From positions 1,573,501 to 1,637,500 of the forward strand of contig NZ_CP066786.1 of NCBI RefSeq assembly GCF_016598595.1: DNA of 64,000 bases. The letters run 5' to 3'. Each line of letters begins with the position of its first letter. Positions within the stretch are counted from its first letter, which is position 1. Source of the DNA: Martelella lutilitoris. GTDB lineage: Bacteria; Pseudomonadota; Alphaproteobacteria; Rhizobiales; Rhizobiaceae. Positions 1 through 8,045 of this stretch are shown here, piece by piece. Under the pieces are notes generated by a model. The model saw nothing but the letters and a program-made list of their open reading frames with translations, was not told where the DNA came from and did not search any database. The translations under genes and the position numbers were made by a program.

Positions 1-264
1 CCCGGCGCCGTCGGCGCTAACGACAAATATCATAAAAATAGATATCATAGAGAATATAATTGGTGAAACTATTAATGTTTTACCTATAATGTCGTATAGG
101 CTTACATAAGAAATTACTCCATTGCCGATTACGGCTAACTCACCCAAAGTGTAGCTTACGCCGAATAGAAAACTCAATCCAATCACCATTGGAGAGTACT
201 TCGCCCACCAATCCGGAGATTTTAAAACAAAACCTTTTGGGTAAATTTGTATTTCTTCTTTCAA
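1..264 (-). CDS. Partial membrane protein at window edge
   Basis: An open frame runs leftward from a TTG codon at 264 to the first base of the window with no stop over 88 codons. A GGAG sequence lies about 10 bases before the TTG. The translation begins (M)KEEIQIYPKGF and holds two hydrophobic stretches, roughly residues 25-45 and 65-85, so it looks like the start of a small inner-membrane protein. It is co-directional with the zinc-ribbon gene at 302-1054, 37 bases away. No family is recognised and the C-terminus is missing. The region is AT-richer than the head genes to its right, as accessory cargo often is. Confidence 0.4.
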   Translation of the reverse strand, partial: MKEEIQIYPKGFVLKSPDWWAKYSPMVIGLSFLFGVSYTLGELAVIGNGVISYVSLYDIIGKTLIVSPIIFSMISIFMIFVVSADGAG

Positions 265-301
265 CCTTTTGGGGCTCCGAATTTGCTTTAAGTGGTCGAT
301 A

Positions 302-1054
302 TTATTTTGTGGGCAGAAATTCATAATCCGAATTCCACCAGAGCCCATCCGCTTTTTTTGGAAATTTCTCTTCGTCTATTTCGCTTACGCCCTCAATCAG
401 GGCGTGATGCCAGATGTTGTTCATTACTGGCACTACCGCTCCTTCTTCACCATTCATGGACGTGATTGATATGAAGCATCCACGCTGAACTTCTTCGTGT
501 GAATCTCGATCAAACTCAAGGTAGTTCTGCATCAACCATTTGGAGTGGTACATTTTCTCGGCTGTCTCATCGGGTCGTAAAAAGAAGCCTGATTTTCCAG
601 TATCGGTTTCGTAACCTAAGACGAACGCACCTGTAACTTCGGATTCTTTTACGGGCCTAATAAAGCCAATGTCTTCGAGGATAAGGTCATCAGAGTCGCT
701 AACACTCACCGTATGGCAAAGTGCGCCTCCATCGACCCATACGGTGCCATTCCCGCCATTAAAAAACACAACAGTGAGGCTGTCCATCGAGACACTCGTG
801 ATATGCGCATAAACACCAAGAGTCATCTGCTCTGAAGCGATATACCTCATCAGGGAAGGGATTCTATCTATTAACAACGTTCCCACTGAAAGTATTGCGA
901 CTGTCAATGCCAGCGCGGCATTCGAAATTTCGAAGTGCCTTCTATAGTTTTGAAAACCTCCGCAATGCTTGCACTTGGTTGCTCCGGCGGGAATGGATTC
1001 GGCGCACTGGACACAGTGTACACTATCTTTTTGATATTCGGCGTCGTCACTCAT
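302..1054 (-). CDS. Zinc-ribbon membrane-anchored hypothetical protein
   Basis: The 250-residue product opens with two CxxC pairs (CVQC and CKHC, about residues 14-32), a zinc-ribbon pattern common at the N-terminus of small membrane proteins. A single hydrophobic helix follows at about residues 45-65 (ALALTVAILSVGTLLI), and then a soluble domain of about 180 residues with no motif I recognise. The likely topology is an N-terminal cytoplasmic ribbon, one membrane pass and an external domain. It lies between an XRE-type regulator gene and another membrane protein gene, all leftward with gaps of 36-37 bases, so the three probably form one operon. Base composition is lower in GC than the core genes. 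Function is unknown; cargo of the integrated element is an inference from position. Confidence 0.7.
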   Translation of the reverse strand: MSDDAEYQKDSVHCVQCAESIPAGATKCKHCGGFQNYRRHFEISNAALALTVAILSVGTLLIDRIPSLMRYIASEQMTLGVYAHITSVSMDSLTVVFFNGGNGTVWVDGGALCHTVSVSDSDDLILEDIGFIRPVKESEVTGAFVLGYETDTGKSGFFLRPDETAEKMYHSKWLMQNYLEFDRDSHEEVQRGCFISITSMNGEEGAVVPVMNNIWHHALIEGVSEIDEEKFPKKADGLWWNSDYEFLPTK

Positions 1055-1090
1055 ACCAACGTACCCGCATTTTCCTGGATGCGCCTTTGA

Positions 1091-1333
1091 TCAACGCTTC
1101 TTAAAGCGAACTCCGGCACCTTCGCCATTTTCTTCGACGAATACTACTCCCGCCTTTTCCAGTGCTGCAACTACAGCAGACCTATTTGCCTCAGTCATTG
1201 ACAACTCACCGTCTTGCGCCTCTGCGCGGCGGACGGTTGCTACTCCGATTTTTGCTGCCTGCGCCAGGTCGTTAGCAGTCCAGCGGAGCAGAGCACGAGC
1301 AGCTCGGATTTGATCACTTGTGATCGGTTTCAT
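1091..1333 (-). CDS. XRE-family helix-turn-helix regulator
   Basis: The ATG at 1333 gives an 80-residue protein starting MKPITSDQIRAARALLRW. It has the compact Cro/C1-type helix-turn-helix seen in many alphaproteobacterial phage and plasmid regulators: helix 'ARALLRWTANDLAQAAKIGVA', then 'TVRRAEAQ'. The C-terminal 'GVVFVEENGEGAGVRFKKR' ending is typical of this short XRE subgroup. The gene is divergent from the gene at 1420, and palindromes with GTGAT/ATCAC arms flank its start codon, so it is the probable repressor of both directions. A longer frame exists upstream but would put coding sequence over the palindromic operator, so the internal ATG is preferred. Confidence 0.85.
   Translation of the reverse strand: MKPITSDQIRAARALLRWTANDLAQAAKIGVATVRRAEAQDGELSMTEANRSAVVAALEKAGVVFVEENGEGAGVRFKKR
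1312..1325. promoter_or_regulatory. Palindrome inside the XRE gene start
   Basis: The sequence GATCACTTGTGATC is a palindrome with perfect 6-base arms and a 2-base centre. It overlaps codons 3-8 of the XRE regulator gene and shares the GTGAT half-site with the palindrome at 1369-1387. A second operator for autoregulation is the natural reading, but no binding evidence exists. Confidence 0.4.
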
Positions 1334-1349
1334 ATCATATGATTTTCTA

Positions 1350-1387
1350 TTGATCGATAAGGTGTCACGTGATAGATAAACTATCAC
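1350..1387 (+). promoter_or_regulatory. Rightward promoter with overlapping operator palindrome
   Basis: A candidate sigma-70 promoter reads TTGATC (1350-1355), a 17-base spacer, then TAGATA (1373-1378). Overlapping the -10 is the palindrome GTGATAGATAAACTATCAC (1369-1387), with perfect 7-base arms around 5 bases. A repressor bound there would block polymerase. The site lies between the divergent XRE gene and the gene at 1420, the layout of a phage-type immunity region. Confidence 0.5.
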
Positions 1388-1419
1388 TTGGTTTGAAAAG
1401 CATCAACGGAGCAACGCGA

Positions 1420-1959
1420 ATGAACGCTCATTTTCGCGAACGGGACAACTATGTCCGCATTACAGAACTCACCCCAGAGCTGAAGCGCAAGATCGAGGAC
1501 GCGGTCGAAAACCTGCTGATGATCCTCGATGCCTATGACGGCGAGGCGGAAGACGAGGACGACGGCAGCGACGAGCCGGTGAACGGATGGCCCAATCAGG
1601 GGCAGTTTTCCAATAACGCCATGTCCTGCGATGACGAGCGGGAAGTCGACAATTCGGAATACGAGCCTTGGCTTGGCTGGACGACGTCAGGACTTCCCGG
1701 CGCATCGTATGACCGCGACCTCGAAATCAATGGCGACGAGAACGAGCCGTTTTGCGGTTGGACCGAAGAACTCGATCAGGATGAGGAATACAGGGTCAAA
1801 GATACCGGACCGCAGGAATGGAGCTACCATTACGGCTTCGACCTTAGCGGTGTCCGTGTAGCGACCGACCTGCTTTCGGAAAAGGTCGGACGCCGGGCAG
1901 CGAATCGCGCCGCGCCGCTGTTGGTCTATCAGGATTTCGTCCGGGGAAATGCGACCTGA
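1420..1959 (+). CDS. Acidic hypothetical protein of rhizobial elements
   Basis: The product from the ATG at 1420 is 179 residues; GGAG 8 bases upstream supports this start over an earlier in-frame GTG at 1369 that lies in the operator. The N-terminal third contains a helical 'ELKRKIEDAVENLLMILDAYDG' stretch followed by an acidic run. After that come recurring short motifs around 'GW' (NGWPNQGQ, LGWTTSG, CGWTEE) and a basic C-terminus. Similar acidic proteins with repeated 'xLGW' motifs are common in rhizobial prophages and genomic islands, where they stay uncharacterised. It is the first gene of the rightward block that leads into the head genes. Confidence 0.7.
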   Translation: MNAHFRERDNYVRITELTPELKRKIEDAVENLLMILDAYDGEAEDEDDGSDEPVNGWPNQGQFSNNAMSCDDEREVDNSEYEPWLGWTTSGLPGASYDRDLEINGDENEPFCGWTEELDQDEEYRVKDTGPQEWSYHYGFDLSGVRVATDLLSEKVGRRAANRAAPLLVYQDFVRGNAT

Positions 1960-2054
1960 GATAACCAGCCTGGAGTTAATGAGATGAAACGGGCCGGGAA
2001 TAATCCAAAATAATACACTGGTATTTTTTGTTCGGATGTGGTTTTAATGCGCTC

Positions 2055-2663
2055 ATGAAACCGAAGCAGACTGCCCCCGAATATATCTATCCCCTCTCCA
2101 CCATGATTGCCGTCGTCGGCGTGAAGCAGATCACGTTCAACAAATGGCGGATCCGCAATGGCCTGTTTCCGCGTACGCAACAGGAAAAGGGATGGAGCTA
2201 TTACTCCGTTGCCGACATCTGCACGGCCACGGCCGTCAAGGGCATGACCGCACAGGGCGCACAGGCCAAGTTTGCGATTGAAGCTGCAATGGCGCTGCTG
2301 CCGCGCTTTGAGGCCATCGACCGGGCAGCACGGGAGCACGGCGAAGACGAGACCCGGCTGGATGATGTTCTGGTGAACACGGTCGCCGTGATCATGAGCG
2401 ACGACGACGCCGAAGAACACGACGACGCCGAGGTCGATATCGAATTCTATTCGCCGACGGTTTCGCTTCAGACGGTTTTGAAGACGGCCGACAACCGGAA
2501 CCGGATCGGCTGGAATGCCGCAAGCTTCCTCGACCTGTTCGAGATCTACAAATCGGTTCTGTTCTCGCTTCAGCTTCTCGACCCCGAAGCCTTTCCGACC
2601 CCCGTTGAACGGGAGCGGATGACCGCCGAAGCCCTGCTCGAAGCGCTTCAAGCCAACCACTAA
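2055..2663 (+). CDS. HTH protein upstream of portal (terminase-small-like position)
   Basis: From the ATG at 2055 the product is 202 residues. Its N-terminal 60 residues look like a MerR/HTH_17-type helix-turn-helix ('VVGVKQITFNKWRIRNGLF' with a wing 'GWSYYSVADI'). A long helical region and an acidic linker (SDDDAEEHDDAEVD) follow. Phages normally have the small terminase subunit just ahead of the large subunit and portal gene. Here the portal gene follows directly after 36 bases, with no large terminase between. It could be a small terminase-like packaging factor or simply a regulator of the head operon; the sequence does not decide. Confidence 0.6.
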   Translation: MKPKQTAPEYIYPLSTMIAVVGVKQITFNKWRIRNGLFPRTQQEKGWSYYSVADICTATAVKGMTAQGAQAKFAIEAAMALLPRFEAIDRAAREHGEDETRLDDVLVNTVAVIMSDDDAEEHDDAEVDIEFYSPTVSLQTVLKTADNRNRIGWNAASFLDLFEIYKSVLFSLQLLDPEAFPTPVERERMTAEALLEALQANH

Positions 2664-2699
2664 GCCGACCGGTCATAACGGGAGCGAATAGATAAGCTG

Positions 2700-4022
2700 A
2701 TGGCATCCTATATTAGAAAACTCTTTCACAAGAGGAACAAAACGGACGCAAAGCATGGCCGTAGCGTGAACGCTGCGGCCTTCTGGCCTGATGATCCCCG
2801 CACAGTGTCCGCAAGCCGGGACATTCGCGCGTCCACGCAGATCGTCGGTCAGCGCGTCGCAGGGCTTTATCTGAACGACCCGGTTGTCCGCTCTGCTGTC
2901 GAGATCATCGTCTCCATGCTGGTCGGTGATGGCGTTCGTCTGAAGCATGCGGATGCAGAGATCGCCAAGGGCTTCAACAGCCGCCGCTTTGACCCTTCCG
3001 AAGAACAGAGCCTGCTTTCCCTTCAACGCGCCGTGGCCCGCTCCTGGGCCGTCTACGGCGAAGCGCTGGCGCTGATGCGCTCCCTTGAGGGCGAGGTTTC
3101 CGTCCAGATGCTGCACCCCGATCAGCTTGAACGGGCAAAGAGCGAAGACCTCGGCAATGGCCGGGTGATCATTGCGGGCGTTGAATTCGATGAATTCGAC
3201 CGCATCGTCGCTTACTGGATCCTGCCGCAGTCGCCGGACGATCCCTTTGGCGTCTATCGCCCGTCGCAGCGCTTCGAGGCTGCCAACGTGCTGCATATCT
3301 TCGAACGTGAGTTTCCCGGCCAGACGCGTGGCATCTCCCCGCTGGTCTCGGTCCTGCCTGTTCTGAACACGGCCAGCATTGCCGTTGATGCCGGGCTTAA
3401 AAAGCTTCAGGTGGCGGCGCTCTTTACCGCCTTTCTGACCACGCCGGACGGCTCGGACGTCTTCAGCGGCGATGTGAAGCCCTCCATGGAGCCGGGCGCA
3501 ACGGTTCGCCTTAATCCCGGCGAAAGCGTTGACATGGCCGAAGGCGGCGAGGCGGGCGACCTGCCTGCTTTCCTCAAGATCCTCTACCGGCAGGTGGCCG
3601 CTGCCATCGGCTGCACCTACGAGGATCTGATCGGCGATCTTGAGGGCGTGAACTATTCGAGCTTCCGTGGCGGTGCCCTGACGGCACGGCGCAAGGCGGA
3701 TGCCCGCCGCACCCTTCTGATCATCGATGGCTTTCTCGTGCCGCTCTATCGCCGTTGGCGAGCCATTGAAGCGCTTCGCGGCAATCTCTCGGTCGAGATC
3801 GAGGATCCCGAATGGATCGAGCCCTCGTGGCCGCAGGTGGACCCGATGAAGGAAGCGCAGGCCGATATCGATCTGGTCGATGCGGGCCTCAAGAGCCGCA
3901 AGGAAGTCATCGAAGGCCGGGGCCGCGACTTCGAAACGGTCGAGGCCGAGATTGCGGCCGACACTTTCACCCCAAAAACAGCCAAGGCCAAAGCGCCGGA
4001 ACAGGAGGCCATCGAAGAATGA
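2700..4022 (+). CDS. Phage portal protein, lambda family
   Basis: The 440-residue product has the features of lambda-type portal proteins, which form the dodecameric DNA-entry ring of the procapsid. The N-terminal part contains 'LNDPVVRSAVEIIVSMLVGDGV', as in the stem and wing lead-in, followed by 'HPDQLERAK' and a 'VLHIFEREFPGQTRGISPL' segment that is a hallmark of the family. The C-terminal 'ATYEDL...NYSSFRGG'-type motif is present as 'CTYEDLIGDLEGVNYSSFRGG'. It is shorter than lambda gpB (533 residues), mainly at both ends, which is common in this family. Its stop overlaps the next gene's start by four bases (ATGA), so the head genes are translationally coupled. Confidence 0.93.
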   Translation: MASYIRKLFHKRNKTDAKHGRSVNAAAFWPDDPRTVSASRDIRASTQIVGQRVAGLYLNDPVVRSAVEIIVSMLVGDGVRLKHADAEIAKGFNSRRFDPSEEQSLLSLQRAVARSWAVYGEALALMRSLEGEVSVQMLHPDQLERAKSEDLGNGRVIIAGVEFDEFDRIVAYWILPQSPDDPFGVYRPSQRFEAANVLHIFEREFPGQTRGISPLVSVLPVLNTASIAVDAGLKKLQVAALFTAFLTTPDGSDVFSGDVKPSMEPGATVRLNPGESVDMAEGGEAGDLPAFLKILYRQVAAAIGCTYEDLIGDLEGVNYSSFRGGALTARRKADARRTLLIIDGFLVPLYRRWRAIEALRGNLSVEIEDPEWIEPSWPQVDPMKEAQADIDLVDAGLKSRKEVIEGRGRDFETVEAEIAADTFTPKTAKAKAPEQEAIEE

Positions 4023-5830
4023 CGCTTCTCATGCGCAGGACGCAAGCGCGCCCGAACTCATACGATCCCGAAACCCGCAGCTTCACCGTGATTGCTGCCA
4101 CCGAAGCGCCGGTTGATCGCGGCGATCATATCGAGGTGCTCGACCTCGATGCCTTCTTTGCCGCAGGCCTGCCCGAAAGCCTGCCGCTTCAGACCGACCA
4201 TTCCCAAAGTGTCCGCGACACGGTCGGCCGCATGAACAACTTCCGGATTGAGACCATCGACGGCAGGCGCGCGCTTGTCGCCGATGCCGTGCTTTCCGGC
4301 CGTGCCGACAATGACGCCCTTGCCGCCAACCTGAAGGATGGTGCGCAGACGGGTTTCTCGGTCGGTTACACCGTTTCCCGCTGGCAGAAGTCGAAGGACG
4401 GCCAGACGGGAAAGCCGATGCGACGCGCCGTTGCCGGGCGGTTCGTTGAGGGTTCGCTTGTCATCAACCCGGCAGACGCAAACGCCTTTGTGAGGATGGA
4501 CACCATGGAAACAGAAACGCAGACCGGCAACGAAAACGCCGGTCTCGATGATGCAACGCTGCGCACGATTGCCCGCTCGGCAGGCATCGCAGACGCCACG
4601 ATTGACACCGTGCTTTCCCGTGGCGGCGACAATGAAGCTCGCATGCGCGGCCTGCTTGAAAGCCTCGGCACTGCACCGCTGGTTCGCAGCGCCGGAAACC
4701 ACAATGAAGACACGCTCGATAACCCGCAGGTGCTTTGCCGTGCGGCCATCGATGCCTTTGACGCCATCAACCGGGGACAGGCACCGACCGGGGCCGCTTC
4801 CGCCGTCTTTGCCGAAGGCGAAGCCGCCTTCGCCCGCCGGATCCTGCGCAATGCCGGGCAGAACATCGCCGGTCTTTCCGATGCGATGGTTCTGCGCAAC
4901 GCTGCCGCCACCGCCGATTATGCGATCATCGCGGGCGGGACGTTCAATCTCTCCATGCGCCGGGAGTATGAAGCGGCACTCTCCCCGATTGCCACGCTCT
5001 TCGGCGAGACGACGGTCGAGACCTTCAACAAGGAAACCTCCGGCCTTGTTGACTGGACGACGCTTGCCATTGGCGACAAGCTGGAAAACGGCCACTACAA
5101 GGCCTCTTACGTTGACGAAAGCGGCGAGACGATCTTTGTCTCGACCATTGGCGGGGTAACGTCCGTTTCCCGCGAGCTTTCGATCAATGCCGGTTCGCGG
5201 CTTGGCGATATGGGGTCCAAGTATGGCCGCAGGCTTGCCGCTGACCTTGCAGACCGGCAGGTCGCATTCCTCGAACAGAGTGACGGGGCAGGCCCGAAGA
5301 TGGCCGACGGTAAGGCCGTGTTCCATGCCAGCCGGGGCAATATTGGTGTCTTCGAAGACCCGGCCGACACTGGCGATGCCCTTCAAGACATCAACCTTCT
5401 TTTGGAGAAGTCCCGGCAGGTTCTGGCCTTCCGCTCCTCCATGTCGCGCCGGAAGGGCAAGGGCGACGTGATCATCGGTGTGTATCCGACCCACTGGCTT
5501 GTCCCGCCGGAATATGAAGCTGACGCCGTGCGTATGGTGTTGGCAACAGCGCCGACCAATATGGCGGAGGTCAACCCGCTGGCGGGAAAGCTGGTGGTTG
5601 TCTCGGAGCCGCGTCTCAGCAACGCAAAGCGTAGCTGGCTGGTAGCTGAGCCTGCCAAGATGGACGGGGCGACCCGTGTGCTTCTGCGCGGCAATGAAGC
5701 GCCCTTCACCGACAGCCGCCAGAACTTCGACACCGATGCCATCGACTTCAAGATCCGGCAGGACTTCGGCCTCGGCTGGCTGGAATGGCGTTCCTGGACC
5801 CGGCTCGATCACACTGAGGCGGTAGGCTGA
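4019..5830 (+). CDS. Prohead protease / major capsid protein fusion
   Basis: The start at 4019 overlaps the portal stop as ATGA and gives 603 residues. Residues 1-160 are an HK97-type (peptidase S78) prohead protease: 'LQTDHSQSVRDTVGRM' supplies His61, 'GFSVGY' supplies Ser114 and 'FVEGSLVINPADANAF' supplies Glu144, matching the order and spacing of the family triad. A linker rich in Glu, Thr and Asn follows, then a capsid domain (about residues 300-603) with the HK97-fold style 'SMRREYEAALSPIATLFGET' and 'GETIFVSTIGGVTSVSREL' segments. In many phages these are two genes; here one chain carries scaffold-processing protease and shell subunit. Neighbours are the portal and connector genes. Self-cleavage at the junction is expected but not shown. 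Confidence 0.9.
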   Translation: MTLLMRRTQARPNSYDPETRSFTVIAATEAPVDRGDHIEVLDLDAFFAAGLPESLPLQTDHSQSVRDTVGRMNNFRIETIDGRRALVADAVLSGRADNDALAANLKDGAQTGFSVGYTVSRWQKSKDGQTGKPMRRAVAGRFVEGSLVINPADANAFVRMDTMETETQTGNENAGLDDATLRTIARSAGIADATIDTVLSRGGDNEARMRGLLESLGTAPLVRSAGNHNEDTLDNPQVLCRAAIDAFDAINRGQAPTGAASAVFAEGEAAFARRILRNAGQNIAGLSDAMVLRNAAATADYAIIAGGTFNLSMRREYEAALSPIATLFGETTVETFNKETSGLVDWTTLAIGDKLENGHYKASYVDESGETIFVSTIGGVTSVSRELSINAGSRLGDMGSKYGRRLAADLADRQVAFLEQSDGAGPKMADGKAVFHASRGNIGVFEDPADTGDALQDINLLLEKSRQVLAFRSSMSRRKGKGDVIIGVYPTHWLVPPEYEADAVRMVLATAPTNMAEVNPLAGKLVVVSEPRLSNAKRSWLVAEPAKMDGATRVLLRGNEAPFTDSRQNFDTDAIDFKIRQDFGLGWLEWRSWTRLDHTEAVG

Positions 5831-6075
5831 TGACAGTGGACGAGCGCACAGAGCTTCAGGCCCAACTCAGCGAAGCAAAGCAGGCGCTGCACAAGCTCGA
5901 AATCGGTCAGAGCGCCGTCACGCTCTCTTATGACGGCGAGAGCATCACCTACACCGCTGCAAACCGCACTTCCCTGCAAGCCTACATCCGCAGGCTTCAG
6001 GCCGAACTCGGGGTTCCCACACAGGCGAACCCGCGCATCTTCAACATTCAGGGACGAAAGGGCTACAGGCCATGA
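5830..6075 (+). CDS. gpW-like head-tail joining protein
   Basis: This 81-residue protein matches the size and layout of lambda gpW, the small connector that plugs the portal after packaging. It has an N-terminal helix 'ELQAQLSEAKQALHKLEIG', a beta hairpin 'AVTLSYDGESITYTAANRTSL' and a second helix 'QAYIRRLQAEL'. The A of its ATG is the last base of the upstream TGA stop. Its own end overlaps the DUF2190 gene by four bases. A connector implies that the element makes, or once made, DNA-filled heads able to accept a tail. Confidence 0.85.
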   Translation: MTVDERTELQAQLSEAKQALHKLEIGQSAVTLSYDGESITYTAANRTSLQAYIRRLQAELGVPTQANPRIFNIQGRKGYRP

Positions 6076-6392
6076 AGAACTTCATCCAGCCCGGCAACAT
6101 TGTCGATCTCACCGCGCCCGCTGGCGGGCTTGCCTCCGGGCAGGCCTATCTCTTCGGATCGCTCTTTGGCGTTGCCACCACAGGCGCCGCAGAAGGCCAG
6201 AGACTGGCCGTATCGCTTGAAGGCGTCTTCGACCTGCCCAAGGCCGCAGGCGACAGTCTCGGCGAAGGTGAGGCCGTCTATTGGGACGGAACGGCCATCT
6301 CGGCCACGAGCGAGGGCAACACGCTTGTCGGCCATGCCGTGGCCGCTGCGCCCGCCGCTGCAACGACCGTTTACGTCCGCGTCAGAAACTGA
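6072..6392 (+). CDS. DUF2190-family capsid cement-like protein
   Basis: The 106-residue product has the DUF2190 pattern: 'MKNFIQPGNIVDLTAPAGGLASGQAYLFGSLFGVA', a central 'GEGEAVYWDG' and a C-terminal beta-strand ending 'TTVYVRVRN'. Members of this family are found beside major capsid genes and are thought to decorate or cement the shell, by analogy with lambda gpD. It starts four bases inside the gpW-like gene, in the tightly packed head operon. It is the last intact structural gene in the element. Confidence 0.88.
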   Translation: MKNFIQPGNIVDLTAPAGGLASGQAYLFGSLFGVATTGAAEGQRLAVSLEGVFDLPKAAGDSLGEGEAVYWDGTAISATSEGNTLVGHAVAAAPAAATTVYVRVRN

Positions 6393-6460
6393 TGCGGGCA
6401 AAGATCGGCGAGGGTGTCTCCGAATCCGCCTTCGCCGAAACGCCAGTCAAGCGCAGGTGA
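6392..6460 (+). pseudogene. 22-codon stump after the last head gene
   Basis: An ATG overlapping the previous stop (TGATG) opens a frame of 22 codons, MRAKIGEGVSESAFAETPVKRR, then TGA. The coupling is like that of the genes before it, so this may be the start of a lost head-tail adaptor or tail gene. It could also be a chance frame. Its end marks the point where structural genes stop. Confidence 0.3.
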
Positions 6461-6498
6461 CTGGTTAGCGGCGTAATCCTTTGTCCGCCGCTGCAAAG

Positions 6499-6532
6499 GC
6501 CTCTCCCCGTGTTCACTCATGGCGGGGAGAGG
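6499..6532. terminator. Strong hairpin between head genes and integration genes
   Basis: The arms GCCTCTCCCC (6499-6508) and GGGGAGAGGC (6523-6532) pair perfectly over 10 bases around a 14-base loop. There is no T-tract, so it may be an mRNA-stabilising or Rho-assisted end of the head operon rather than a classical terminator. Confidence 0.5.
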
Positions 6533-6561
6533 CTGAGACCGAAAAACGAGGAAAGAATAAG

Positions 6562-6816
6562 ATGGCAGGTAGCAGTTTGCGGGAAGTGACGATCCCCCGT
6601 TTTGCGTTACGGGCAGAAGAGGCGGCGGCATCGCTGGCAATCTCGACTTCGCTTTTCAAGGCATGGGTTTCTGATGGACGCATGCCGAGGGGGCGCAAGA
6701 TCGGCGGTGTGATGCTTTGGGACACTGAGAAGGTGAGGGCGGCTTGGAGCCGTCTTTCTGAAGATGGCGAAAGCCAGGACGATGATGAGAATCCCTTTGA
6801 TGGGATGGTGGCCTGA
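6562..6816 (+). CDS. AlpA/excisionase-like HTH protein
   Basis: The ATG at 6562 gives 84 residues with a winged-helix MerR/AlpA-type fold: 'RAEEAAASLAISTSLFKAWVSDGRMPRGRKIGGVMLWDTEKVRAAWSRL'. That 'HTH plus P-G/R-K-I plus W-D' pattern is typical of excisionase and AlpA regulators that direct integrase or switch on phage-like islands. It overlaps the integrase start by one base, supporting a joint recombination module. Excision factor is the likelier role; transcriptional activator is possible. Confidence 0.75.
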   Translation: MAGSSLREVTIPRFALRAEEAAASLAISTSLFKAWVSDGRMPRGRKIGGVMLWDTEKVRAAWSRLSEDGESQDDDENPFDGMVA

Positions 6817-7931
6817 TGAAAACCCGATTGCGCTACTGTGTGTTTGATCCTGATCGGCGCGGAAACCCGCGCTATTACGTGCGCCAAGTTGGTAAGCCAA
6901 AAGTGCGGATCAAGGCGGCGTACAAGGATGATCAGGGGAACATCACACCGGAATTCATGGCTGAGTATTGGGCGGCTCTGGCCGTCCTTAATGGTATGGC
7001 TGAACCGAAAAAGGAAGCGCCTCGCGAAGAAACCTTCGACTGGCTGGTCGATCAGTATTTTCGCTCGCAGCGCTTCCAGCGGCTCAATGAGGCCACCCGG
7101 CGCGACAAGCGCAGTGTGTTGTTGCGGTTCTGTGAAACGGCCGGTGCGCTTCCCTACAAGAAGTTCCGCAAGAAGGACATGGAGGCCAGCCAATTCAAGC
7201 GCCGCGAAACGCCCGGTGCAGCTGACAAGCTCGTGAAGGTGATGCGCGCACTCTATAACTGGGCGATTGACGAAAAGCTTGCCGTGGAAAACCCGGCGGC
7301 GCGTGTGGGCAAGATCAACAATAAGTCGGAAGGCTTCCACACATGGACGCCGGAAGAGGTTGACCGGTTCCGCGCCTTTCATCCGCTAGGCAGTAAGCCG
7401 CGTCTGGCGATGGAAATCATGATCAATGTCGGCGCGCGGATCTCCGACGCATGCCGACTCGGCCGCCAGCACGAAACCATGATCAACGGGCGGCGCTGGC
7501 TGAAGTTCACCGCTGAAAAGAACCGTGATCGCTTTCCGGTGCTGATTGAGGTGCCGATGACCTCTGACCTTATCAAAGCGCTCGAACGTACAGAGACGGG
7601 TGATCTGGCCTATCTGGTGACCAGCTTCGGCAAGCCCTTTGTGAAAGAAGGTCTCGGCAACAAGATGCGCGAATGGTGCAATCAGGCCGGACTGAAGCGT
7701 TGCAGCGCCCATGGGCTTCGCAAGGCTGCCGCCGTGATCATGGCTGAAAGCGAAGTGTCAGCGCCGGAGCTTTGCGCGGCCTTCGGATGGCGCAATCTCA
7801 GCACGGCACAGATCTACATTCGCGAAGCTGAAAAGCGCCGTCTCTCCCGAAATGCCTTCGAGCGTGTCGAACGCTTCAGGAACAGGAATGTCTCACTTTC
7901 AAAAGCGAAAAACGCCGATGAGACATATTGA
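6816..7931 (+). CDS. Tyrosine-family site-specific integrase
   Basis: The 371-residue product is a tyrosine recombinase of normal length. An N-terminal arm-binding segment is followed by a core-binding helical region (about 70-165) and the catalytic domain. Visible active-site residues are Arg208 ('INVGARISDACRLG'), Lys near 235, His299 and Arg302 ('CSAHGLRKAAA'), Trp325 at the second-His position and the nucleophile Tyr334 ('STAQIYIREAEKRR'). The gene ends 39 bases from the 3' end of tRNA-Val. Integrases often sit next to the tRNA they target, so tRNA-Val is the likely attachment site and the element extends leftward. No catalytic residue is missing, so it may be active. Confidence 0.93.
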   Translation: MKTRLRYCVFDPDRRGNPRYYVRQVGKPKVRIKAAYKDDQGNITPEFMAEYWAALAVLNGMAEPKKEAPREETFDWLVDQYFRSQRFQRLNEATRRDKRSVLLRFCETAGALPYKKFRKKDMEASQFKRRETPGAADKLVKVMRALYNWAIDEKLAVENPAARVGKINNKSEGFHTWTPEEVDRFRAFHPLGSKPRLAMEIMINVGARISDACRLGRQHETMINGRRWLKFTAEKNRDRFPVLIEVPMTSDLIKALERTETGDLAYLVTSFGKPFVKEGLGNKMREWCNQAGLKRCSAHGLRKAAAVIMAESEVSAPELCAAFGWRNLSTAQIYIREAEKRRLSRNAFERVERFRNRNVSLSKAKNADETY

Positions 7932-7969
7932 GGAAATTATGATGGGAAAACAGTGCCCTAAAAAGGGGA

Positions 7970-8045
7970 TGGTGGGCGATGAGAGGCTCGAACTCCCGAC
8001 ATCCTCGGTGTAAACGAGGCGCTCTACCAACTGAGCTAATCGCCC
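7970..8045 (-). tRNA. tRNA-Val (anticodon TAC)
   Basis: Read on the minus strand from 8045, the sequence starts GGGCGATTAGCTCAG and folds as a standard cloverleaf with acceptor GGGCGAT/ATCGCCC. The anticodon loop carries TAC, the T-arm has GTTCGAG, and CCA is encoded (7970-7972). Its 3' end faces the integrase gene 39 bases away, making it the probable integration site of the element to the left. Confidence 0.95.

What the first reader, a model, noticed from the sequence alone, without database searches (positions are those of the whole stretch)
1..7931. Compact capsid-only element: satellite-like, no visible terminase large subunit or tail genes
Between the leftward accessory genes and tRNA-Val there is an intact integrase, an AlpA-like factor, an immunity-type divergent operator and a short, tightly coupled head block: portal, protease-capsid fusion, gpW and DUF2190. 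The portal gene follows an HTH gene directly, where phages have terminase, and no tail gene follows DUF2190. Capsid-forming phage-inducible islands (cf-PICIs) are known to carry their own capsid genes and take tails from helpers; those described keep terminase genes. If the missing terminase is not further left, this would be a smaller design that makes heads and relies on a helper for packaging and tails, or a derived encapsulating system. All head genes are intact with conserved catalytic residues and overlapping junctions, which argues against random decay.
Basis: partly seen in the sequence, partly recalled or inferred. Interest (0 to 1): 0.85.

Follow-up and report, generated by a model that had tools for sequence, protein, structure and literature searches.

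The report
Capsid-making, tail-borrowing phage satellite
A 12-kilobase mobile element in a Martelella bacterium carries genes to build and fill its own virus head but none for a tail, and its head-to-tail adaptor looks like a splice of its own part with a part from local tailed phages, which suggests how such satellites plug into borrowed tails.

Summary
The head block is real and intact, but the window cuts the element. Read leftward in the same genome, it is a 12.28-kb element between 19-bp repeats at tRNA-Val: replication initiator, TerS, TerL (gpA type), regulator/cargo island, portal, protease-capsid fusion, gpW, cement, AlpA-like protein, integrase; no tail gene. So "no terminase" is wrong; "capsid without tail" holds.

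Head genes are under purifying selection (27 nonsynonymous, 274 synonymous changes against Martelella sp. AD-3). Three Martelella have the empty site. A fourth has the same integrase and att site with a canonical HK97-type cf-PICI head module instead. The same head block, with gpW after the capsid gene, occurs in 17 other families of the order.

It works like a cf-PICI with a different head/packaging module. Most informative is gpW: its tail-facing body is 61-69% identical to gpW of tailed Martelella prophages, whose TerL and portal are only 24-27% identical to the satellite's, while its portal-docking C-arm is like that of its nearest satellites. I infer that the satellite kept the arm that grips its own portal and shares the body that fits local phage necks. 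Particles and tail use are untested.

The parts
1..348 (-). cargo gene, N-terminal part of a 293-aa protein without family match, membrane-like by eye; it runs off the window's left end (L007:17467-18348). Further left, outside the window but inside the element: TerL L007:15664-17442, TerS L007:15147-15674, replication initiator L007:13977-15008, attL L007:13690-13708 (L007 position minus 18000 = window position)
   Evidence: no Pfam, PHROG, NCBIfam or PADLOC match; parts left of the window:
302..1054 (-). cargo gene, 250 aa, zinc-ribbon-like N-terminus (by eye)
   Evidence: weak phrog_8032 and phrog_8436 matches only
1091..1387 (-). Xre-like regulator, possible satellite repressor
   Evidence: TIGR03070 below cut-off, PADLOC Control_protein 5.6e-8; tblastn relatives in 12 of 40 loci
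1369..1959 (+). acidic protein, 196 aa (start probably 1420), divergent partner of the Xre-like gene
   Evidence: homologs beside the Xre-like gene in relatives
2028..2663 (+). HTH-like protein (by eye), 211 aa (start probably 2055), in front of portal
   Evidence: no family match; 77% in AD-3, 89% in G408
2700..4022 (+). portal, lambda family
   Evidence: PF05136 5.5e-65; dN/dS 0.02 against AD-3
4019..5830 (+). prohead protease/major capsid fusion, 603 aa
   Evidence: PF25209, phrog_4523, NF045541; dN/dS 0.02
5830..6075 (+). gpW head-tail adaptor, mosaic: body (about 1-62) of Martelella-phage type, C-arm (about 63-81) of satellite type
   Evidence: PF02831 1.3e-16
6072..6392 (+). cement/decoration protein
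   Evidence: PF09956 6e-29
6481..6816 (+). AlpA-like activator/excisionase (start probably 6562)
   Evidence: phrog_25900 3.6e-7; position before int
6816..7931 (+). tyrosine integrase
   Evidence: PF00589 4.1e-18
7966..7984 (.). attR, 19-bp repeat overlapping the 3' end of tRNA-Val
7970..8045 (-). tRNA-Val(TAC), integration target (host gene, kept whole)

Best explanation
A 12.28-kb integrative phage satellite of the capsid-forming kind. Integrase and the AlpA-like protein move it in and out of tRNA-Val; the O-like protein starts its replication; the divergent Xre-like gene keeps it quiet until a helper phage arrives. Its own TerS and TerL (gpA) pack its DNA into its own small head (portal, protease-capsid fusion, cement), closed by its own gpW ring. 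It has no FII stopper, tail terminator, tube, tape measure or tip, so a helper siphophage must supply them and lysis. The gpW body, which in lambda bears the hairpin barrel that sits in the FII ring, is of the kind found in lambda-type Martelella prophages, while the C-arm, which in lambda docks on the portal, is of the kind found in the nearest satellites. I infer that gpW recombined so that one end fits the satellite portal and the other the local helper neck. Shown: gene content, borders, empty sites, selection, spread of the head block, the gpW mosaic. Inferred: induction, head formation, tail capture, direction of the gpW exchange, the helper's identity.
For: Complete element between 19-bp repeats, with TerS/TerL and no tail family in any called gene. 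Empty tRNA-Val with colinear flanks in 3 of 4 Martelella examined that lack an element there; the fourth has no left-flank match. AD-3 carries a sister at the same site (12.06 kb); six head and packaging genes show 27 nonsynonymous and 274 synonymous changes, pN/pS 0.033. G400 has the same att, integrase (99%) and replication gene (76%) with a cf-PICI-type head module: PF04860, PF04586, PF05065, HNH, connector, TerS, TerL. 29 of 40 examined MCP loci have gpW after the MCP, in 17 families; in 24 of these 29 an integrase lies 1.9-3.3 kb after the MCP start, leaving no room for a tail cluster between; 5 of 40 have gpW before portal, as in tailed phages. 25 of 35 tRNA ends in the 40 loci (24 loci) have a distant repeat of 14 bp or more, against 17 of 360 random fragments. 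MCP tree: satellite and phage labels need 2 changes, 0 of 500 shuffles as low. gpW mosaic; lambda neck structure PMC10721106 section 7.
Against: No excision, particle or transfer data. The window's own genome has no PF10145 tape measure and no PF02831 gpW but the satellite's, so no fitting helper was found there; of its two PF04860 portals one is in a tailed prophage (L193) with a PF03354/PF20441 terminase and a PF05521 neck. No HNH gene and no PF05065 capsid, both given for cf-PICIs. One origin of the satellite MCPs is not shown (p-AU 0.156). 5 of the 29 loci lack an integrase after the head block (L102, L106, L107, L127, L131), and L131 has a tape measure. The gpW argument rests on 81 residues. 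On the arm alone only the five nearest satellites stand clearly out; a phage (RcKemmy) ranks 7th of 55. In the second case (L113/L117) no close donor phage was found.
Confidence: 0.84

Rival explanations
1. A decaying prophage that lost its tail genes by chance, with head genes not yet damaged.
For: Genes are phage genes; lone defective prophages are common (general knowledge); one metagenomic relative (L048) has its portal split by inserted genes.
Against: pN/pS 0.033 on the head and packaging genes; gpW-after-MCP order in 29 of 40 loci across 17 families, 24 with an integrase 1.9-3.3 kb after the MCP start; of 20 such loci with att repeats 18 span 10.7-12.5 kb; replacement of one whole head module by another on the same backbone.
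Confidence: 0.06
2. A PICI whose capsid genes disturb or remodel helper heads rather than form its own. PMC10111431 says that capsid genes of Gram-negative PICIs are common and not required for transfer (passages).
For: MCP-bearing relatives without portal or terminase exist here too (L122, L125: att-bounded).
Against: This element has a full and separate packaging and head set (TerS, TerL, portal, protease, MCP, gpW, cement) under purifying selection, far from the phage versions (TerL 26-27%, portal 24-26%).
Confidence: 0.06
3. One reading: a head-only element without terminase.
For: Only if the window is read alone.
Against: TerS and TerL lie inside the att repeats.
Confidence: 0.01
4. A domesticated particle system (gene-transfer-agent-like or encapsulating) kept for the host.
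For: Intact head genes under selection.
Against: Integrase, AlpA-like gene, att repeats, empty sites in sister species, different tRNA targets in relatives, and its own terminase point to a mobile parasite.
Confidence: 0.03

Closest known systems
Capsid-forming PICIs (cf-PICIs; Alqurainy et al. 2023, not held, known here through passages of citing papers)
   Same: Integrase, AlpA, divergent regulator, replication gene, TerS/TerL, portal, protease, MCP and connector, no tails; 12.3 kb here, average 14 kb in PMC10803314; a sister element on the same backbone (G400, L081) has the PF05065/PF04860/HNH module.
   Different: Head and packaging are gpA TerL, PF05136 portal, PF25209 protease-capsid fusion, gpW and DUF2190; no HNH found; host is a Rhizobiaceae genus (family by recall), while PMC10803314 names other main hosts for cf-PICIs (passages).
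Streptomyces satellites MulchRoom/MiniFlayer (PMC10690885, passages)
   Same: Own capsid and packaging genes; MulchRoom particles have a tail like the helper's.
   Different: They parasitise virulent phages; homology to the present element was not tested here.
Gram-negative PICIs with a lone capsid gene, e.g. Klebsiella and E. coli circular records of 10.5-10.8 kb
   Same: Integrase, an AlpA or HTH regulator, protease-capsid fusion, DUF1441 (a small-terminase type by recall).
   Different: No portal, TerL, gpW or cement annotated.
Rhodobacter phage RcKemmy, coliphage mEp043, Paracoccus phage Psul1 (tailed phages with a similar head module)
   Same: Terminase, portal and protease-capsid genes in the same order; DUF2190 in mEp043; MCP parts 28-30% identical.
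   Different: A small gene (gpW-like in RcKemmy, connector in Psul1, unnamed in mEp043) lies between TerL and portal, and tail genes follow.
Lambda gpW (1HYW, 8K38)
   Same: Lambda residues 4-58 align with 10-64 of the satellite protein.
   Different: C-arm not aligned; of another kind.

Membership tests
cf-PICI | own MCP, head protease, portal and head-tail connector (PMC10690885, passages) | tested here: met
cf-PICI | own small and large terminase | tested here: met
cf-PICI | HNH endonuclease with the packaging genes (PMC10690885, passages) | tested here: not met
   no HNH family in any called gene of the element; present in the sister L081
cf-PICI | HK97-type MCP of PF05065, the family used for published cf-PICIs in PMC13230959 (section 10) | tested here: not met
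   PF25209 instead; PF05065 is in the sister L081
cf-PICI | integrase, AlpA, divergent regulator, replication gene, att sites | tested here: met
   the AlpA and regulator matches are weak
cf-PICI | no tail genes | tested here: met
   no tail family in any called gene between the att repeats
cf-PICI | helper-induced, forms heads, takes helper tails | not testable with these tools
   needs induction, electron microscopy and transfer assays
complete tailed phage | tail tube, tape measure and tip genes | tested here: not met
   none within the att repeats
   TerL at C1:1571164-1572942
gpW family | PF02831 score over the curated cut-off | tested here: met
   60.6 bits against 22.5

The most novel reading that the evidence does not exclude
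The order holds a large, so far unnamed family of capsid-forming satellites with a gpA/fusion-capsid head, in which the last head protein (gpW) is an exchangeable adaptor. A satellite-specific C-arm grips the satellite portal, and the tail-facing body is replaced by recombination with resident phages, so that the adaptor's sequence records which phage family lends its tail. Whole head modules are also exchanged on a constant integration/replication backbone.
Probability: 0.55. Interest if true: 0.82.

Novelty: new variant of a known kind. Interest (0 to 1): 0.72.

Why it matters
cf-PICIs are known to take tails from helpers, but how a foreign head is matched to a foreign tail is, as far as I know, open. 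Here one 81-residue protein carries a sequence break close to the boundary between the portal-docking arm and the neck-facing body known from the lambda structure. That gives a testable rule for tail compatibility, points to a likely helper phage type, and suggests reading adaptor sequences to predict satellite-helper pairs. The same head block marks related elements in 17 further families of the sampled order, and the TerL-portal gap carries restriction-modification genes in some relatives.

Tried and rejected
Rejected: missing terminase; prophage decay. A single origin of the satellite MCPs is neither rejected nor shown. Defence function of the window's own two cargo genes: no PADLOC match. 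A within-genome gpW test for other satellites failed, because PF02831 and phrog_75 do not see most satellite gpW proteins (matches in 3 and 6 of 30 genomes). My first regular-expression test for the protease motif was too narrow and was replaced by an alignment column count. The named genome scan by MCP found one distant locus only. In the first MCP tree satellite labels were given to all loci not in the phage set, L130, L131 and L137 among them without proof; satellites then needed 4 changes. In one search those three and L122, L125 were left out of the group (35 against 10 phages; 8 rows not counted). The 35 still include loci without an integrase found (L102, L106, L107, L127) and the Paracoccus locus L158, which was not tested for att sites. 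Gene calls in relatives come from a simple caller of my own, which missed some integrases later found by tblastn. Tail families were not scanned for in every relative; the only wide tail check was the PF10145 tape-measure cluster. The 40 loci were the 32 best places after the window's own and G086, plus 8 picked from lower ranks, of 80 such places, so the counts are of a sample chosen by MCP similarity. Only 20 of the 40 were extended leftward for att repeats. A class-wide sample gave a match in 16 of 385 genomes; of its places only that of G117 was read (as L126), and G450 and G736 were included in the gpW searches. L190 was left out of the gpW residue counts as a near copy of L189.
Full report
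What the window shows. The window, however, begins inside the element. It is G000:C1:1573501-1637500, and the genome could be read leftward.

The whole element. A 19-bp repeat overlapping the tRNA-Val 3' end (window 7966-7984) recurs exactly at C1:1569190, giving an element of 12,276 bp. From left to right it holds an O-like replication initiator, TerS (phrog_57), TerL of the gpA type (PF05876/PF20454), a cargo island on the other strand with an Xre-like regulator, an acidic protein and an HTH-like protein, then the head block and integrase. No called gene matches a tail family.

Genus. G406 C2 is identical over the 8,000 bp compared to, and as long as, plasmid NZ_CP014276.1 of Martelella sp. 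AD-3. G406 is in the window's genus, so the window is from a Martelella.

Mobility and selection. All 13 genomes of the genus matched the tRNA region; I read the site in eight, the window's own included. AD-3 (G406) has a sister element at the same site, 12.06 kb, with TerS, TerL, portal, MCP, gpW, cement and integrase 95-100% identical but a different cargo island. G398, G399 and G401 have the same flanks with an empty tRNA-Val; G408 has no left-flank match there but carries another relative elsewhere, beside a different tRNA-Val, with MCP 89% identical and another integrase. In G405 the site lies at contig ends, and none of the element's genes was found in the stretches read. Between the window's element and AD-3 six head and packaging genes differ by 274 synonymous and 27 nonsynonymous changes (pN/pS 0.033). 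They are not decaying.

Head-module exchange. In G400 the same att site holds a 15.9-kb element with integrase 99% and replication gene 76% identical, but with PF04860 portal, PF04586 protease, PF05065 capsid, HNH, gp6-type connector, Terminase_4 TerS and TerL instead. That matches the gene set given for cf-PICIs in PMC10690885 (passages). Its portal (77%), protease (71-72%), MCP (72-73%) and TerL (84-85%) resemble those in tape-measure-bearing regions of G406 (L194) and of G400 itself (L195); HNH (68%), TerS (58%) and two small proteins (54-59%) less so. So one backbone carries either of two unrelated head modules. This is the best single argument that the window's element is a satellite of the cf-PICI kind and not a stump of a phage.

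A wider family. MCP relatives (E up to 1e-10) occur in 67 of 397 genomes sampled from the order and 16 of 385 sampled from the class, the window's own included in both. I read 40 of the 80 places other than the window's own and G086. In 29 of 40, gpW or its equivalent lies after the MCP, as here, in 17 families; 27 of these 29 have TerL in the stretch, and 24 have an integrase 1.9-3.3 kb after the MCP start. L102, L106, L107 and L127 showed no integrase; L131 has it upstream and carries a tape measure. In 5 of 40 gpW lies before portal, where the tailed phages RcKemmy, S1 and Psul1 have their small connector gene; one of the five was shown to have sheath and tape-measure genes (L135). The remaining 6 have no gpW found or lie outside both patterns. 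In 24 of 40 loci the MCP lies between a tRNA 3' end and a repeat of it of 14 bp or more; 17 of 360 random fragments of the same loci reach 14 bp. Of the 24, 20 have gpW after the MCP; 18 of those 20 span 10.7-12.5 kb, the others 15.3 and 17.1 kb. The relative in G086 has its integrase next to tRNA-Met. On the MCP tree 35 satellite-labelled rows and 10 phages need two changes of label (0 of 500 shuffles as low); a single satellite origin is neither rejected (p-AU 0.156) nor shown.

The gpW mosaic. Twelve lambda-type prophage loci of eight Martelella genomes (L174, L175, L177, L183-L191) have gpW 61-69% identical to the satellite's over 58-69 residues, whereas their TerL (found in 11) is 26-27% and portal 24-26% identical, and MCP and cement gave no match. 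Conversely, the satellites nearest in MCP outside Martelella (L047, L048; 71% and 67%) have gpW only 34-38% identical. By region, for 11 of these phages (L190 left out) and then L047/L048/L085: hairpin 11-13 of 14 against 5, 4 and 1; distal C-arm 3-4 of 15 against 10, 12 and 6. Among 55 gpW proteins ranked by alignment score to the satellite's, the 11 phages take ranks 3-13 for the body and 34-50 for the arm; L047, L085 and L048 take ranks 21, 33 and 39 for the body, and with the two Martelella sisters the top five for the arm. Beyond these five the arm does not separate satellites from phages (RcKemmy ranks 7th). The body matches all 11 phages at DNA level (78-84% over 68-91 bp); L047 and L048 give no DNA match. 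The further gpW phages looked at (phi2LM21, RcMaeve, nine IMG/VR loci) lack this arm too. In lambda the C-arm binds the portal by strand addition and the hairpin barrel rests in the FII ring (PMC10721106, section 7). A second case: L113 and L117 score as PF02831 gpW while L104, 71-77% identical in MCP, does not, yet the three share the arm (10 of 17 residues between L113 and L104); no close donor phage was found. The direction of exchange is inferred.

Likely helper. L174 of AD-3 has lambda-family MCP (PF03864), FII (PF05354), tail terminator, tail tube (PF06199), tape measure, and the minor tail families PF05939 and PF05100. AD-3 has two such prophages. In the window's strain no PF10145 tape measure and no other gpW was found; its prophage L193 shares tail-tip genes (protein L 99% identical) but has a TerL of the PF03354/PF20441 type and a PF05521 neck. 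In that strain the satellite may be waiting for an incoming phage.

Literature. Searches for cf-PICI, capsid-forming PICI, SatelliteFinder, satellites with Alphaproteobacteria or Rhizobiales terms, Martelella prophages, and satellite adaptors (listings) showed no title or abstract start reporting this family or a mosaic satellite adaptor. The library lacks most subscription papers, including the founding cf-PICI paper. PMC10803314 names the main cf-PICI hosts without Rhizobiales (passages). PMC13230959 uses PF05065 for published cf-PICIs (section 10). PMC11080155 on prophages of the order has one passing use of 'satellite' and no PICI (find).

Judgement. It fails two tested cf-PICI features (HNH, PF05065), so I file it as a variant, not a member in the strict sense.

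Noticed in passing
L081 1631-17548 (G400): Canonical cf-PICI head module (PF05065, HNH etc.) on the same integrase, AlpA, replication and att backbone as the window's element.
   Followed up: yes
L115, L121, L131: Three elements of this family or near it carry a tape-measure gene (PF10145 in L115 and L131, same cluster in L121), in L115 next to a tail-protein match (phrog_166), with no full tail seen. PMC10448857 (passages) mentions tape-measure genes in putative E. coli satellites.
   Followed up: partly
L122, L125 (tRNA-Gly): Att-bounded 9-10 kb elements with MCP and integrase but no portal or terminase found; L122 has a subtilase inside and a glycosyltransferase at its left repeat.
   Followed up: partly
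L106 4825-14376: A 3183-aa open frame begins with a cement-protein domain and ends with a peptidase M23 domain.
   Followed up: no
L102, L107, L158: Restriction-modification genes (type I in L102, type II in L107, a cytosine methyltransferase in Paracoccus L158) lie in the TerL-portal gap of relatives.
   Followed up: partly
L193 (G000:C1:1291001-1311000): Tailed prophage in the window's genome whose tail-tip protein L is 99% identical to that of AD-3's gpW-type prophage, with a different head type.
   Followed up: partly
L192 (G000:C1:2714001-2734000): Compact cluster of portal, protease, capsid and tail-like genes that resembles a gene-transfer-agent cluster (by gene order and recall).
   Followed up: no
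L091 (NZ_OW485609.1), L092 (NZ_CP142848.1), L093 (NZ_CP148328.1): Records of 10.5-10.8 kb labelled as plasmids that carry a protease-capsid fusion; two have an integrase, one has ParA.
   Followed up: partly
L202-L210 (IMG/VR): Nine viral contigs encode gpW 83-97% identical to that of L113 over its whole length; several contigs are 12-14 kb long, the size of the satellites.
   Followed up: no
L048 3102-4260: Transposase-like genes (by eye) interrupt the portal gene of a metagenomic relative.
   Followed up: no
L007:12553-13149: Pieces of an IS481-type transposase just left of attL.
   Followed up: no
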